Assembly (NCBI RefSeq): GCF_010728925.1
Contig: NZ_AP022608.1
Coordinates: 4,340,001 to 4,404,000 of the forward strand
Length of the DNA: 64,000 nucleotides
Source of the DNA: Mycolicibacterium gadium
Lineage (GTDB): Bacteria > Actinomycetota > Actinomycetes > Mycobacteriales > Mycobacteriaceae
Reading direction: 5' to 3'
The notes beneath the pieces were generated by a model. The model saw only the letters and a list, made by a program, of their open reading frames with translations, did not search any database and was not told the DNA's origin. Of this stretch, positions 19,648 to 23,990 are shown in pieces. Each line of letters begins with the position of its first letter. Position 1 is the stretch's first letter. The translations under genes and the position numbers were made by a program.

Positions 19648-20853
19648 ATGAGACACGACAGCAAACATTTTGGTCCGCGACATTATGGTCGTCTGGTGCA
19701 CCGGCGAACTGCTCTCAAGCTCCCGTTGTACCTGGCAGCGGCCGCGGCGCTGACCAAGATTCCCGTCGCCTCCGCTGCGGCGAGTCGATGGTCAGCAGAT
19801 CGCGCGAACGCCTGGTACGCGCAGCAAGGCTGGTTGCTTGGCGCGAACTATGTCACGTCGACCGCCGTCAACCAGCTGGAGATGTTCCAGGCGGGCACCT
19901 ACGACGCGCGCCGCATCGCGGGCGAGTTGAGCGTGGCCCGGCGCATCGGGATGAACACCATGCGGGTGTTCCTGCACGACCAGTTGTGGGCGACCGATCG
20001 GGCCGGGTTCAGCAGCCGGCTTTCCGAATTCGTGGCCATCGCAGCGAGGCACCAGATCAAGCCGCTCTTCGTTTTGTTCGACTCGTGCTGGGATCCCTTA
20101 CCGAAGGCGGGCCGTCAACGCGCACCCATCAAGGGGGTGCACAACTCCGGATGGGTTCAGAGCCCGGGCGCCCATCGTCTTCGGGACCCGGCCTACACCC
20201 GCGTGCTGCAAAGCTATGTCACCGGCGTCGTGGGCATGTTCGCGAACGATCCTCGCGTGCTCGGCTGGGACGTCTGGAACGAGCCGGACAACCCGTCGAA
20301 GGACTACAGCGAGGTCGAGCACCAGGACAAGATGGAACTGGTCGCCGCCTTCCTCCCGCATGTCTTCCAATGGGTGCGCGCCGTCAACCCGATTCAGCCA
20401 TTGACCAGTGGCGTGTGGCAGGGCCACTGGAAGGATCCGGGAAGCCGCAGCAAGATAGCCGGCCTGCAGCTCGAGCACTCCGACATCATCAGTTTCCACA
20501 GCTACGCCGAACCCGCTGAATTCGACGCCCGCATCGACGAACTCACCCCGCTGGGGCGCCCGATCATCTGCACCGAGTACCTGGCGCGGAACTTGGGGAG
20601 CACGGTCGAAGGAATTCTTCCGATCGCCAAGCGGCGCAACGTCGGCGCCTATAACTGGGGGTTCGTCGCCGGACGCACGCAGACCTATCTGCCCTGGGAT
20701 TCGTGGCAGCAGCCGTACACCGAGCTCCCTGACACGTGGTTCAGCGATCTGATCCACCCCGATGGACGAGCCCACAATGACGACGAGATTCGCGTCATCC
20801 AGAAGCTCGCAGGGGTTGGTCGAATTGCGACGGGCGCACCCGCCGTTCGTTAG
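19648..20853 (+). CDS. GH5-like secreted glycoside hydrolase
   Basis: A 401-residue secreted glycosidase. The N-terminus has a twin-arginine signal (HRRTALKLPLYLAAAAALTK with an ASAAA cleavage region). The (beta/alpha)8 barrel carries WDVWNEPDNP, with the general acid/base near Glu212, and ICTEYLAR, with the nucleophile near Glu310. These suit GH5 beta-mannanases, cellulases and related enzymes acting on beta-1,4 glycans outside the cell. ATG 19648 is chosen; a TTG four codons earlier is possible. Its stop overlaps that of the convergent marR gene (TTAG). Confidence 0.85.
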   Translation: MRHDSKHFGPRHYGRLVHRRTALKLPLYLAAAAALTKIPVASAAASRWSADRANAWYAQQGWLLGANYVTSTAVNQLEMFQAGTYDARRIAGELSVARRIGMNTMRVFLHDQLWATDRAGFSSRLSEFVAIAARHQIKPLFVLFDSCWDPLPKAGRQRAPIKGVHNSGWVQSPGAHRLRDPAYTRVLQSYVTGVVGMFANDPRVLGWDVWNEPDNPSKDYSEVEHQDKMELVAAFLPHVFQWVRAVNPIQPLTSGVWQGHWKDPGSRSKIAGLQLEHSDIISFHSYAEPAEFDARIDELTPLGRPIICTEYLARNLGSTVEGILPIAKRRNVGAYNWGFVAGRTQTYLPWDSWQQPYTELPDTWFSDLIHPDGRAHNDDEIRVIQKLAGVGRIATGAPAVR

Positions 20854-21335
20854 GGGGCGCGTCTTCGCGGTGCGGCGGAACGGGGTGGCCGTTCACGCAT
20901 GTGATCGCGCACGCGACTCATGAGGTCACCGAGTATGTGCACGTCGCCGTCGGAGAGTGCGCCGTACAGCAGGTCGCGGACCACGTCGATGTGACCGGGA
21001 AGAACCTTGGCGACCAGCGCACGACCCGCCTTGGTGATGTCAACGACGGTGGCACGCTTGTCATCGGGGCTGCCTTTGCGGACGATCAGTCCCGCCGTCT
21101 CCAGCAGTCCTGCCTGATGCGTCAGGCCGCTGCGGCTGTAGACCACACCGTCGGCGAGCTCAGTCATGGTGAGCGGACGCTTGGCGTCGACCAGTTTGGC
21201 CAAGACCTCGAACTGCACATAGCTGAGGCCGCCCTCGGCCTGCAACTGTTCCTGCACCGCGTGCTGAAGCAGGCTGACCGCCTCGGTCAGTGCGAAGTAG
21301 GTACGCATTTGCGCAGGCTTCAGACCGCTCGCCAT
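20850..21335 (-). CDS. MarR-family regulator
   Basis: A 161-residue MarR regulator. The winged helix carries PLTMTELADGVVYSRSGLTH followed by QAGLLETAGLIVRKGSPDDK (DNA recognition and wing), flanked by dimer helices. The transcript is probably leaderless, with TAGGAT six bases before ATG 21335. An 18-bp operator-like site at 21349-21366 lies just upstream of that -10. The same site type appears twice before the quinone oxidoreductase gene at 23043, so this MarR likely represses itself and that enzyme. MarR proteins of this kind often sense quinones or oxidants. Confidence 0.88.
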   Translation of the reverse strand: MASGLKPAQMRTYFALTEAVSLLQHAVQEQLQAEGGLSYVQFEVLAKLVDAKRPLTMTELADGVVYSRSGLTHQAGLLETAGLIVRKGSPDDKRATVVDITKAGRALVAKVLPGHIDVVRDLLYGALSDGDVHILGDLMSRVRDHMRERPPRSAAPRRRAP

Positions 21336-21341
21336 GGCGTC

Positions 21342-21347
21342 ATCCTA
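21342..21347 (-). promoter_or_regulatory. -10 element of a leaderless marR transcript
   Basis: On the minus strand TAGGAT is followed by six bases and the start codon of the MarR gene. This spacing is that of mycobacterial leaderless promoters. Confidence 0.55.
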
Positions 21348-21348
21348 G

Positions 21349-21366
21349 TGTTTCAACATCGAAGCA
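21349..21366. promoter_or_regulatory. MarR operator (autoregulatory copy)
   Basis: TGTTTCAA-CA-TCGAAGCA is an imperfect 8-2-8 palindrome. Its right arm equals that of the second site before the oxidoreductase gene (23007-23024), and its left arm differs at two positions. It lies in the -35/-10 spacer of marR. Confidence 0.65.
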
Positions 21367-21393
21367 ATAAGTAACGCCGCGTGTTCAGCTTTC

Positions 21394-21969
21394 TCAGCGG
21401 CGGGTGAATTGGGTGACGAGCAGATCCAGCCGCTCCGATTCGTTGCCCGGGCGTAGTCGTCCGGTACGGCCGAGGGTGACCAGCCCGTGCAACGTCGCCC
21501 AGAAGACCTCGGTGAGCGCGTCGGCATCCTGTTCGTCGGTGACGAGGCTGACCGCGTGACGCAACTCGGTAAAGGCTGCCTCCAGCTGGGGAGGTGTGTC
21601 GTCGGCGGCGAAGCGTAGCGCGGTGGTGCGGGTGAACATCGCGTCGTAAACGGCGCGGTTGTCGCGGGCGAAGTCGAGGTAGGCGCGGGCGCTGGTGTGC
21701 AACGCCTCGGCCGCCGCGCCTGCCCCGCGGCGAGCGACCCTGATCACCTCGGCGAGCTCGCCGAACCCCTCGATGGCGATCGCATCGGCGATCTGTTCCA
21801 TGCCGGTGAAGTGCTTGTAGAGGACAGGCTGGCTGTACTCGATCTCAGTCGACAGCCGACGTGTGGTCACGGCATCCCAGCCCTCGTCCTCGGCCAGCCT
21901 GCGGGCCGTCGTGACGATCAGCCGCCGCCGGGCGGCGCGCTCACGTTCGCGGCGGTCATCGATGGCCAT
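21394..21969 (-). CDS. TetR-family transcriptional regulator
   Basis: A 191-residue TetR repressor. The helix-turn-helix region is LIVTTARRLAEDEGWDAVTT then RRLSTEIEYSQPVLYKHF. The C-terminal part has a TetR_C-like ALTEVFWATLHGLVTL helix. ATG 21969 is preceded by TAGAGT at five bases on the minus strand, so the message is probably leaderless. Three TAGCnnnGCTA palindromes between this gene and the divergent membrane-protein gene overlap both promoters, making repression of itself and of the two membrane proteins likely. Confidence 0.88.
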   Translation of the reverse strand: MAIDDRRERERAARRRLIVTTARRLAEDEGWDAVTTRRLSTEIEYSQPVLYKHFTGMEQIADAIAIEGFGELAEVIRVARRGAGAAAEALHTSARAYLDFARDNRAVYDAMFTRTTALRFAADDTPPQLEAAFTELRHAVSLVTDEQDADALTEVFWATLHGLVTLGRTGRLRPGNESERLDLLVTQFTRR

Positions 21970-21977
21970 GCCGAACT

Positions 21978-21990
21978 CTAGCACCGCTAG
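21978..21990. promoter_or_regulatory. TetR operator 1
   Basis: CTAGC-ACC-GCTAG, a perfect 5-3-5 palindrome that overlaps the tetR -10 (21975-21980). Confidence 0.75.
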
Positions 21991-21995
21991 AACAG

Positions 21996-22008
21996 ATAGC
22001 ACCGCTAT
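21996..22008. promoter_or_regulatory. TetR operator 2
   Basis: ATAGC-ACC-GCTAT, a perfect 5-3-5 palindrome centred 18 bp from operator 1. Its last base is the first base of the TTGACA -35 of the divergent promoter. Confidence 0.75.
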
Positions 22009-22036
22009 TGACAGCGAGATCCAACGGGGTTAGCGT
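22008..22036 (+). promoter_or_regulatory. Promoter of the DUF1772/DUF4267 membrane-protein pair
   Basis: The consensus -35 TTGACA (22008-22013), a 17-bp spacer and the -10 TAGCGT (22031-22036) lie 33 bp before the ATG at 22069. Operators 2 and 3 touch the -35 and -10. Confidence 0.7.
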
Positions 22037-22041
22037 TGCTA
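22031..22041. promoter_or_regulatory. TetR operator 3
   Basis: TAGC-GTT-GCTA covers the -10 of the divergent promoter and has the same TAGCnnnGCTA core as operators 1 and 2. Confidence 0.6.
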
Positions 22042-22068
22042 GCACCTACTCCCGAAGGGTGCTGTGAC

Positions 22069-22545
22069 ATGGCTTTGGAGCTCACCAGGATCGCCGCACT
22101 GCTCGCGGTGCTCGGGACCGCAGTCGTATACGGCACCGACGTGTTCTGCGCGATTGTGCTTCGACCTGCCCTGGCGTCGCTCGACGACGGTGCGCTGGTC
22201 GCGATCATGGGACGAGTGCACCGATATGGGGACCGGCGCATGCGTGTGCCCGGAGTGCTCGGTGTCGTGGCCTCCGCGACGAGCGCGATGCTGGCCGCCG
22301 TCAGTGGACATTGGTCGCAGACGATCGCGGCGGGCGCCGCTCTGCTGCTGCTCTTGGCCTGGATAGCGCTCTACACACAGGTGAGCGCGCCGATCAATCG
22401 ACAACTGACAGCGGCCGTCGATGCCGGCGCAACATTGTCGAATGGACGTGTGCTGCAGACAAAGTGGGATCGCGTCATCGATGCCCGTGCAGCGCTGCAA
22501 GGCCTGGCGGTGGCTGCCCTCTGCGTAGTGCTGATGATCCCGTGA
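22069..22545 (+). CDS. DUF1772-like integral membrane protein
   Basis: A 158-residue protein with four membrane helices (near residues 5-28, 58-78, 84-105 and 138-156). Between helices 3 and 4 comes NGRVLQTKWDRVIDARAALQ, where a W-D-R...R pattern resembles the DUF1772 (anthrone-oxygenase-like) family. Fungal members oxygenate polyketide anthrones; bacterial ones are uncharacterised. It follows a strong promoter with TetR operators and overlaps the next gene (GTGA), so the two membrane proteins are cotranslated. Confidence 0.7.
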   Translation: MALELTRIAALLAVLGTAVVYGTDVFCAIVLRPALASLDDGALVAIMGRVHRYGDRRMRVPGVLGVVASATSAMLAAVSGHWSQTIAAGAALLLLLAWIALYTQVSAPINRQLTAAVDAGATLSNGRVLQTKWDRVIDARAALQGLAVAALCVVLMIP

Positions 22546-22922
22546 CCGCCATCGCCATCGGCTATACACTCGCCGGACTCATCGCAGCGGGCATCATCTT
22601 CATCGGCGCACGCTTCATCGTCGCGCCGCGCGTTGCGGCCGCCGGCTACGGTGTGCTGCCCGATTCAGAGCAGACGTCGGTTCACGCCTACTTGCGCGCC
22701 AAGGGCGTGCGCGACATCGCATCGGGTCTGTTCGTCATCGTCCTGATGGTCGGCGGTGCGACCCACCTCCTCGGCTGGCTGATATTGGCAGCGACCTTCA
22801 TTCCGATCGCCGACGCGACCATCGTGCTCCGCAACGGCGGCGCCAAATCGATCGCCTTGGGAGTCCACGGCGGCACCGCTGTCGTCATGCCCATCACTTC
22901 TGCGCTGCTACTCCTTCCCTAG
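22542..22922 (+). CDS. DUF4267-like small membrane protein
   Basis: A 126-residue protein with four predicted membrane helices: IGYTLAGLIAAGIIFIGARF, the SGLFVIVLMVGGATHLLG pair, and a C-terminal ALGVHGGTAVVMPITSALLL. The central motif AKGVRDIASGL is characteristic of DUF4267. It begins at GTG 22542, overlapping the stop of the DUF1772-like gene, and belongs to the TetR-controlled unit. The function is unknown. A perfect 13-bp tandem duplication covers its stop codon. Confidence 0.75.
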   Translation: MTAIAIGYTLAGLIAAGIIFIGARFIVAPRVAAAGYGVLPDSEQTSVHAYLRAKGVRDIASGLFVIVLMVGGATHLLGWLILAATFIPIADATIVLRNGGAKSIALGVHGGTAVVMPITSALLLLP

Positions 22923-22940
22923 GCGCGTTCCCTAGGCGCG
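22915..22940. repeat. Tandem 13-bp duplication over a stop codon
   Basis: TTCCCTAGGCGCG occurs twice with no gap. The first copy holds the TAG stop of the DUF4267-like gene. It looks like a recent slippage or duplication event. Confidence 0.8.
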
Positions 22941-22973
22941 TTGCTGGACCACCCGAGACCGGCGTCGCGGAAT

Positions 22974-22991
22974 TACTTCGACATCGAAGTA
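22974..22991. promoter_or_regulatory. MarR operator A of the quinone oxidoreductase gene
   Basis: TACTTCGA-CA-TCGAAGTA, a perfect 8-2-8 palindrome overlapping a possible -35 (TCGACA, 22978-22983), with TTGAAT (23002-23007) as a possible -10. Confidence 0.75.
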
Positions 22992-23006
22992 GTTACTCCA
23001 CTTGAA

Positions 23007-23024
23007 TGCTTCGAAATCGAAGCA
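23007..23024. promoter_or_regulatory. MarR operator B of the quinone oxidoreductase gene
   Basis: TGCTTCGA-AA-TCGAAGCA, a perfect 8-2-8 palindrome centred 33 bp from operator A, at the predicted start point. Confidence 0.75.
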
Positions 23025-23042
23025 CTACTGGAGGAGGAGAAC

Positions 23043-23990
23043 ATGAAGGCTGTGCGATACCACCGCTACGGAGGCAGCGATGTGCTGCGGTACGAGGAGG
23101 CCCCGCGGCCGGTACCTGGGCCGGGGCAGGTTCTGGTGAAGGTGGCGGCGACTTCGTTCAACCCGGTGGACGCCGGTATCCGCGGCGGCTACCTGTCCGA
23201 CGTGTACGAGATCAGCTTCCCGCACATCCCGGGTGTGGACGTCGCGGGCACGATCGCGGAACTCGGCGACGGAGTCCAGGGATGGAAGGTCGGCGACGCG
23301 GTAGTCGCGTTTCTGCCGCTGGACGCTGACGGCGCGGCCGCTGAGTACACCCTCGTGCCGGCCGAGTCGCTGGCGGCCGCGCCGCGTTCGGTGGACCTGA
23401 CCGATGCGGCAGCGTTGCCCGAGGCTGCGTTGACAGCGTGGCAGGCCCTCTTCGACGTCGCCGGTGTGACGGCCGGACAGACGATCCTGATCAATGGCGC
23501 TGCCGGCGCGGTGGGTGGCTATGCGATCCAGTTGGCCAAGCAGGCCGGCGCCGTCGTGACCGCAACCGCCAAAGAGCGTGACGCCGTGCGGCTACGCGGT
23601 TTGGGTGCCGACCGAACGATCGACTACATCGACTACAGCTCGTCGCCGGTCGAGATCGAGGGGGCACCGTTCGACGTGGTGCTCAACCTCGTCAGCACAA
23701 CCGACGAGCAGACCGAAGCGTTGATCGGCGCGATCGCCGACGGCGGCTTCCACGTGGGCACCATGGTTTTCGGGCCGCAGAACCCCGGCCGCGGAGTCCG
23801 CTCGCAGCGAGTATTCGTCCGCAGTGACGCCGCGCAGTTGGCGGGGCTGGTCGGTCGCGTCGACGAACGACAGCTGCGCATCGAGGTCGCGGACCGCCGG
23901 CCACTGGAACAGTCCGCGGCCGTGCATGAGGACTCCGACGCAGGACGTCTGCGGGGAAAGACGATTCTCCTGGCCGCCACGAGCAATTGA
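23043..23990 (+). CDS. NADP-dependent quinone oxidoreductase-like MDR enzyme
   Basis: A 315-residue medium-chain dehydrogenase/reductase of the zinc-free quinone oxidoreductase type. It begins MKAVRYHRYGGSDVLRYEEA, has HIPGVDVAGTIAELG, and a nucleotide-binding motif INGAAGAVGGYAIQLAKQAG near residues 150-170. Such enzymes reduce quinones or enones with NADPH and protect against electrophiles. GGAGGAG precedes ATG 23043; the longer frame from 22941 would run through the operators. Two palindromes shared with the marR gene at 20850 indicate repression relieved by reactive compounds. Confidence 0.9.
   Translation: MKAVRYHRYGGSDVLRYEEAPRPVPGPGQVLVKVAATSFNPVDAGIRGGYLSDVYEISFPHIPGVDVAGTIAELGDGVQGWKVGDAVVAFLPLDADGAAAEYTLVPAESLAAAPRSVDLTDAAALPEAALTAWQALFDVAGVTAGQTILINGAAGAVGGYAIQLAKQAGAVVTATAKERDAVRLRGLGADRTIDYIDYSSSPVEIEGAPFDVVLNLVSTTDEQTEALIGAIADGGFHVGTMVFGPQNPGRGVRSQRVFVRSDAAQLAGLVGRVDERQLRIEVADRRPLEQSAAVHEDSDAGRLRGKTILLAATSN

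What the first reader, a model, noticed from the sequence alone, without database searches (positions are those of the whole stretch)
21975..22041. Three TAGCnnnGCTA sites that close both promoters of a TetR/membrane-protein unit
Seen: perfect palindromes at 21978-21990 and 21996-22008, with the same core at 22031-22041. The first overlaps the tetR -10, the second abuts the TTGACA -35 and the third covers the -10 of the divergent promoter. The arrangement gives a simple circuit: one repressor shuts both directions. The output is two uncharacterised membrane proteins (DUF1772-like and DUF4267-like) read as one coupled unit, perhaps forming an unknown oxidase or permease.
Basis: partly seen in the sequence, partly recalled or inferred. 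Interest (0 to 1): 0.75.

Follow-up and report, generated by a model that had tools for sequence, protein, structure and literature searches.

The report
Three-site TetR switch before membrane-protein operon
A short DNA control region carries three copies of one probable repressor-binding word, each laid on or beside a promoter part, so that one repressor probably switches off both its own gene and a neighbouring operon of membrane proteins; the layout is kept in many mycobacteria and resembles a repressor unit already footprinted in Streptomyces.

Summary
TAGCnnnGCTA occurs three times in the window, all here (0.08 expected). In 30 loci fetched by the downstream protein, not the motif (window included), site 3 is perfect in 30, site 2 in 29, site 1 in 13 (11 more at 7/8), while the promoter spacer drifts. 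Of 198 genus genomes, all 71 with the 34-bp site pair carry this TetR; the other 11 TetR genomes have a 35-bp, one-mismatch or degraded version. Site 3 contains the operon -10 (middle base T in 138/138 loci). Site 1 supplies the TA of the tetR -10: TANNNT in 119/120 tetR-adjacent loci, against 4/16 where tetR is not adjacent, so tetR mRNA is probably leaderless. In 6 genomes with tetR moved away, its promoter keeps sites 1-2 without site 3. Streptomyces homologues (51-54% identical) share recognition helix and site word; the published LodR1 footprint (PMC10100954) reports CTAGCGTTGC before a DUF1772 gene. So: a new variant of a known kind. Operon: anthrone-oxygenase-like/DUF4267, with NIPSNAP, SnoaL-like or F420-reductase-like partners in relatives; inducer unknown. 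Binding was not tested here.

The parts
21394..21969 (-). TetR-family repressor gene, 191 aa, ATG start, predicted leaderless
   Evidence: PF00440 41.1 bits and PF13305 51 bits, both over cut-off; aligned start codon is ATG in 114 and GTG in 5 of 120 tetR-adjacent loci
21975..21980 (-). tetR -10 candidate TAGAGT; its TA is the outer end of site 1
   Evidence: TANNNT at this place in 119 of 120 tetR-adjacent loci; 5-7 nt before the start codon in 119 of 120
21979..21989 (.). site 1, TAGCACCGCTA (13-mer 21978-21990)
   Evidence: arms 8/8 in 13, 7/8 in 11, fewer in 6 of 30 loci
21997..22007 (.). site 2, TAGCACCGCTA (13-mer 21996-22008); abuts the operon -35
   Evidence: arms 8/8 in 29 of 30 loci
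22008..22013 (+). operon -35 TTGACA
   Evidence: TTGAC columns 91% mean majority base in 30 loci
22031..22041 (.). site 3, TAGCGTTGCTA; contains the operon -10
   Evidence: arms 8/8 in 30 of 30 loci
22031..22036 (+). operon -10 TAGCGT
   Evidence: TAGCGT in 120 and TAGCAT in 18 of 138 loci
22069..22545 (+). DUF1772 / anthrone-oxygenase-like membrane protein, 158 aa
   Evidence: no Pfam match itself at E<=1; 19 of 22 aligned members match PF08592 at E<=0.01, best 6.9e-6; some database names say DUF1772, others hypothetical protein
22542..22922 (+). DUF4267 membrane protein, 126 aa, GTG start overlapping the previous stop
   Evidence: PF14087 93 bits, cut-off 27.8

Best explanation
A TetR-family repressor of the LodR1 kind binds TAGC-RNY-GCTA. 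Site 2 lies at the -35 region of both divergent promoters, site 1 overlaps the -10 of a leaderless tetR mRNA and lies close to its start codon, and site 3 contains the -10 of the DUF1772-DUF4267 operon. Occupied sites exclude RNA polymerase in both directions: negative autoregulation plus repression of the operon. Site 1 is the least conserved, which would let a little repressor be made. An unknown ligand, perhaps an aromatic polyketide- or quinone-like compound, lifts the repression. Shown: sequences, spacing, conservation, co-occurrence. Inferred: binding, repression, leaderless start, ligand class.
For: Rarity. Conservation in 30 protein-fetched loci: mean majority base 97% in site 2 arms, 100% in site 3 arms, 85% in site 1 arms, 39% in the spacer, 54% in the leader. 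All 71 of 198 genus genomes with the 34-bp pair carry the TetR; of the 11 further TetR genomes 8 have a 35-bp register, 2 the 34-bp register with one mismatch, 1 degraded sites. A scan of gaps 4-34 in 98 genomes gave, with four exceptions, only 18- and 34-bp pairs. tetR -10: TANNNT 119/120 adjacent against 4/16 not adjacent; site 3 middle T 138/138, site 2 15/138. In 6 genomes with tetR elsewhere, the tetR promoter keeps site 2 (8/8 or 7/8) and in 5 of them site 1 (8/8 or 7/8), with no site 3. Residues 43-51 (IEYSQPVLY), in the recognition-helix region, are each at least 98% identical in 123 TetRs; SQPVLY recurs in 11 of 12 more distant TetR loci, 11 of which have at least one perfect site. 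LodR1 footprint, and lodA-lodC up in its deletion mutant: PMC10100954, section 7 read.
Against: No binding, expression or ligand data for this protein. The genomes share ancestry, so counts are not independent events. Arms of sites 2 and 3 were search criteria for most loci (not for the 30). Site 1 is imperfect in 17 of 30 loci. One tetR-adjacent locus (L130, Curtobacterium) lacks the tetR -10 and site 1 at this place. L236, L233 and L235 do not show the three-site layout. LodR1's own sequence was not retrieved, and its ligand is unknown.
Confidence: 0.87

Rival explanations
1. The conserved words are only promoter elements (a TAGCGT -10 and a TTGAC -35), not operators.
For: Site 3 contains the -10 in 138 of 138 loci; in 10 of 15 more distant loci the middle element is an imperfect site (6/8 or 7/8), often just the left half TAGCGTTG.
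Against: The right arm GCTA lies outside the -10 and is kept in 30 of 30; site 2 is upstream of the -35; site presence tracks the TetR gene.
Confidence: 0.04
2. Another regulator, not this TetR, binds the sites.
For: In 12 of 116 pattern loci the genes are there but no TetR gene is adjacent.
Against: Every one of the 71 pair-bearing genus genomes has this TetR somewhere; a moved tetR keeps its own sites.
Confidence: 0.04
3. TetR is an activator or has two roles, site 2 upstream of the -35 serving activation of the operon.
For: Site 2 abuts the -35; the best NCBIfam match is the activator FasR, though far below its cut-off (33 of 330 bits).
Against: Sites 1 and 3 sit on the two -10 elements, which should block polymerase; LodR1 represses lodAB.
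Confidence: 0.05

Closest known systems
LodR1-lodAB of Streptomyces sp. FXJ1.172 (PMC10100954; section 7 read in full, other passages seen)
   Same: [quoted passage not shown] reported recognition sequence 5'-CTAGCGTTGC-3' near the lodA start, matched in 9 of 10 bases at 22030-22039. Streptomyces homologues 51-54% identical to the window TetR carry the same words and recognition helix.
   Different: Second gene is an antibiotic-biosynthesis monooxygenase, not DUF4267; that unit sits in a lasalocid cluster, and its authors found no intact homologue of lodR1-lodC. In the Streptomyces loci read here the middle element is imperfect and lies about 18 bp from the operon-side site, not from the tetR-side site.
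Rv3160c/Rv3161c of Mycobacterium tuberculosis (PMC7810876; passages seen)
   Same: TetR-like repressor of a putative oxygenase, palindromic operator at the -10, released by a small molecule.
   Different: One rv3160c-rv3161c operon, 12- and 8-bp inverted repeats; homology to this TetR was not tested.
Classical TetR/tetA switch (recalled, not looked up)
   Same: One repressor, divergent promoters, operators on both.
   Different: Two operators rather than three; tetracycline pump.

Membership tests
TetR family of repressors | N-terminal TetR HTH and ligand-type C-terminal domain | tested here: met
   PF00440 41.1 bits (cut-off 24), PF13305 51 bits (26.8)
LodR1-type TetR/DUF1772 unit | same recognition word | tested here: met
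   TAGCGTTGC at 22031-22039 (9 of 10 bases with 22030); CTAGCGTTGC exact in Streptomyces loci L225, L226, L231
LodR1-type TetR/DUF1772 unit | DUF1772 gene on the other side of the operator region | tested here: met
   22069-22545; family assignment weak for this member, better for relatives
LodR1-type TetR/DUF1772 unit | sequence homology to LodR1 itself | not tested
   LodR1 sequence not retrieved; Streptomyces homologues stand in, nearly all 192 aa like LodR1 among the 120 listed
LodR1-type TetR/DUF1772 unit | direct binding and derepression on deletion | not testable with these tools
   needs bench work
Anthrone oxygenase PF08592 (DUF1772) | profile match over cut-off | tested here: inconclusive
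   window protein none at E<=1 and none in the own genome at E<=0.01; 19 of 22 members at E<=0.01; the two scores seen are 25.4 and 24.0 bits against cut-off 27.3
DUF4267 PF14087 | profile match over cut-off | tested here: met
   93 bits, cut-off 27.8

The most novel reading that the evidence does not exclude
The repressor commands an actinobacterial module that senses and detoxifies aromatic polyketide- or quinone-like compounds: anthrone-oxygenase-like protein, DUF4267, NIPSNAP, SnoaL-like cyclase and F420-type quinone-reductase-like protein, assorted in different combinations behind one conserved switch, with DUF1772-like and DUF4267 proteins forming a new membrane oxygenase.
Probability: 0.2. 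Interest if true: 0.65.

Novelty: new variant of a known kind. Interest (0 to 1): 0.42.

Why it matters
It gives an operator word, an operator layout and a first regulon for a TetR family spread over mycobacteria and other actinobacteria, whose nearest footprinted relative (LodR1) has no known ligand. The recurring partner genes point to a chemistry to test, and the site pair can be used to find further targets among uncharacterised membrane families (DUF1772, DUF4267).

Tried and rejected
Rejected: the strict sigma-70 scan as a test of the promoters (0 found). The 'terminator-like' hit 22016-22000 overlaps the site 2 arms and was not taken as a terminator. Other TAGCnnnGCTA sites of the own genome: 13 besides the three; 9 overlap a high-GC3 ORF, 4 do not; one of the 4 (4686592) lies just upstream of a LysR-type gene and was not pursued. 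Helical phasing as cause of the spacing: the 34- and 35-bp registers go with 17- and 18-nt promoter spacers, so promoter geometry is the simpler cause. Taken as chance: the G132 pair and three pattern hits without any of the genes (L090 and L104, Oceanospirillaceae/Neptuniibacter bins with the same gene beside the site; L175, organism not seen). The reversed-pattern control hits most genomes, since that word is common (551 in the own genome); it hits 2 of 198. Solved-structure search with the DUF1772-like profile: nothing at E<=10. Paper searches; no listing showed a paper on this mycobacterial unit, DUF4267 gave none, and SCO6121/SVEN_3912/LodR1 gave PMC10100954 alone. Recount: 18 loci were classed as tetR not adjacent; two of them (L091, L114) hold under 140 upstream bases, so they were dropped, leaving 16.

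Full report
Observation. They are the only three in 64 kb (0.08 expected in shuffles) and three of 16 in the whole genome.

Genes. tetR 21394-21969 (minus), then divergently the DUF1772-like gene 22069-22545 and the DUF4267 gene 22542-22922, overlapping as GTGA. The DUF1772 label is weak for this member (no Pfam match at E<=1), but 19 of 22 aligned members match PF08592 at E<=0.01, and some database names say DUF1772. A simple hydropathy scan shows several hydrophobic segments in both. The genus is Mycobacterium in the wide sense, judged from the named records; the nearest named one seen is M. tusciae (L096, TetR 90%).

Conservation without motif bias. One search covered 100 genomes (the own one included) with the DUF1772-like protein: 34 have it, all among the 60 of the same genus. 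The 30 best loci, the window's own included, were fetched; 4 genomes (G011, G038, G042, G052) were not. In the 30, site 3 arms are 8/8 in 30; site 2 in 29 (the other, L018, has a one-mismatch copy shifted by one base, read by eye); site 1 is 8/8 in 13, 7/8 in 11 and poorer in 6, four of which have no tetR adjacent (L010, L018, L026, L033). The spacer is near random (39% mean majority base).

Co-occurrence. The 34-bp pair is in 71 of 198 genus genomes; the reversed control in 2. TetR (E<=1e-40) is in 82 of the 198, including all 71. The 11 others were read: 8 have sites 2 and 3 in a 35-bp register (18-nt promoter spacer), 2 the 34-bp register with one mismatch, 1 (G129, a 3.2-Mb genome) degraded sites. 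A scan for all gaps 4 to 34 in 98 genomes returned 18- and 34-bp pairs with four exceptions: G121 (35 bp), G019 (19 bp), G132 (gap 12, unrelated), and an 18-bp pair at another place in G038. Fisher p for the table 71/0/11/116 is 1.8e-42, but the genomes share ancestry, so this does not count independent events.

Promoters. From 192 loci with a pair, I dropped those with under 120 bp of flank, exact duplicates and those without any of the genes, leaving 138; 120 have tetR adjacent. Site 3's middle base is T in 138/138 and site 2's in 15/138: in site 3 that base is the last T of the -10 TAGCRT. At tetR, the outer TA of site 1 plus four bases reads TANNNT in 119/120 (the exception is L130), and it ends 5 to 7 nt before the start codon in 119/120. 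Of 18 loci first classed as not adjacent, two hold too little upstream sequence; of the other 16, 4 read TANNNT (p 4.5e-13). The predicted tetR mRNA is therefore leaderless, a mode described for mycobacteria (PMC3898074, title and abstract start seen in a listing). Caveat: the arms of sites 2 and 3 were search criteria for most of these loci, and TTG for those; the bases compared here were not.

Natural dissection. In G009, G019, G036, G055, G120 and G236 tetR is not divergent to the operon. Its own promoter there keeps site 2 (8/8 or 7/8) and, except in G019 (6/8), site 1 (8/8 or 7/8), and has no site 3; the operon keeps its pair. G055 has a second pair in front of a separate DUF4267 gene (L062). 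G001 and G035 have tetR beside a NIPSNAP-DUF4267 operon (L036, L056) and the DUF1772-like gene elsewhere, with a pair (G001) or an imperfect one (G035).

Regulon. Of 116 stretches of genome contigs with pair plus TTG (80 listed, all 116 read by script), 98 have tetR adjacent, 12 do not, 3 are at a locus edge, 3 look like chance. Downstream, in various combinations: DUF1772-like, NIPSNAP (PF07978, 30.4 bits in L006), DUF4267, an F420H2-quinone-reductase-like protein (PF04075, 21 bits against cut-off 22 in L030) and, in Amycolatopsis, Curtobacterium, Actinoplanes and some mycobacteria, a SnoaL-like protein (PF07366, 126.8 bits in L122, the only one scanned). These families are at home in aromatic polyketide and quinone chemistry (recalled), hence the guessed ligand class; F420H2-dependent reductases of mycobacteria that degrade aflatoxin are in print (PMC3034190, listing only).

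Beyond mycobacteria. TetR at E<=1e-30 is in 17 of 396 phylum genomes. Of 12 loci new in that call (L225-L236; L236 is same-genus G011), 11 carry at least one perfect site upstream of tetR, and the three other-genus loci (L206-L208) all do. In 12 of these 15, sites (7/8 or 8/8) stand near +11 and +62 from the tetR start; in 10 an imperfect element (6/8 or 7/8) stands near +44, about 18 bp from the operon-side site. In the mycobacteria the middle site is perfect and near +29, 18 bp from the tetR-side site. L234 has the +29 form; L235 has +11 and +29 but no +62; L233 and L236 fit neither. So outer sites are kept while the middle one differs in place: close to a mirror image.

Known relative. PMC10100954 (section 7 read; other passages) shows LodR1, a 192-aa TetR, binding the lodR1-lodA region and none of the other promoters tried, protecting -52 to +38, recognition sequence CTAGCGTTGC, with lodA-lodC up in the mutant; lodA encodes a DUF1772 protein. 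Whether lodR1 and lodA are divergent was not stated in what I saw. Streptomyces TetR homologues found here (best 120 listed: 86-99% identical to L227, nearly all 192 aa) share SQPVLY with the window family, and L225, L226 and L231 contain CTAGCGTTGC exactly. That they are LodR1's orthologues is inference, since LodR1 itself was not fetched. Lasalocid and other antibiotics (ampicillin, apramycin, chloromycetin named) did not release LodR1.

Verdict. Ordinary in principle (a TetR autoregulated divergent unit with a footprinted relative), unusual in how cleanly three sites, two promoters and a leaderless start are interlocked and kept. Interest 0.42.

Noticed in passing
22976-22989, 23009-23022 and 21351-21364: A second circuit flanks the first: CTTCGANNTCGAAG twice, 33 bp apart, before the quinone-oxidoreductase-like gene (23043-23990), and a weaker copy before the marR gene (20850-21335). 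Two such sites (11 or 12 of 12 arm bases, 33-36 bp apart) stand before QOR in all 12 distinct loci examined, the window's own included; 6 perfect copies in the genome.
   Followed up: partly
window 20850-23990 against L096, L144, L075, L094: The marR and QOR genes bracket the tetR unit in the window, L096 and L144, but both lie downstream of it in L075 and L094: the two units are neighbours in changing order.
   Followed up: no
L236 (G011): A diverged TetR (48%) with two neighbouring one-mismatch sites (TAGCATTGTTA, TAACAATGCTA), a DUF4267 gene on the divergent side and a 49% DUF1772-like gene downstream of tetR.
   Followed up: no
L216, own genome 4686592: A single TAGCATCGCTA just upstream of a LysR-type regulator gene.
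   Followed up: no
L221, G173:C3:549000-556000: Two tetR genes (74% each to the window's) about 3 kb apart with identical site pairs, suggesting a recent duplication.
   Followed up: no
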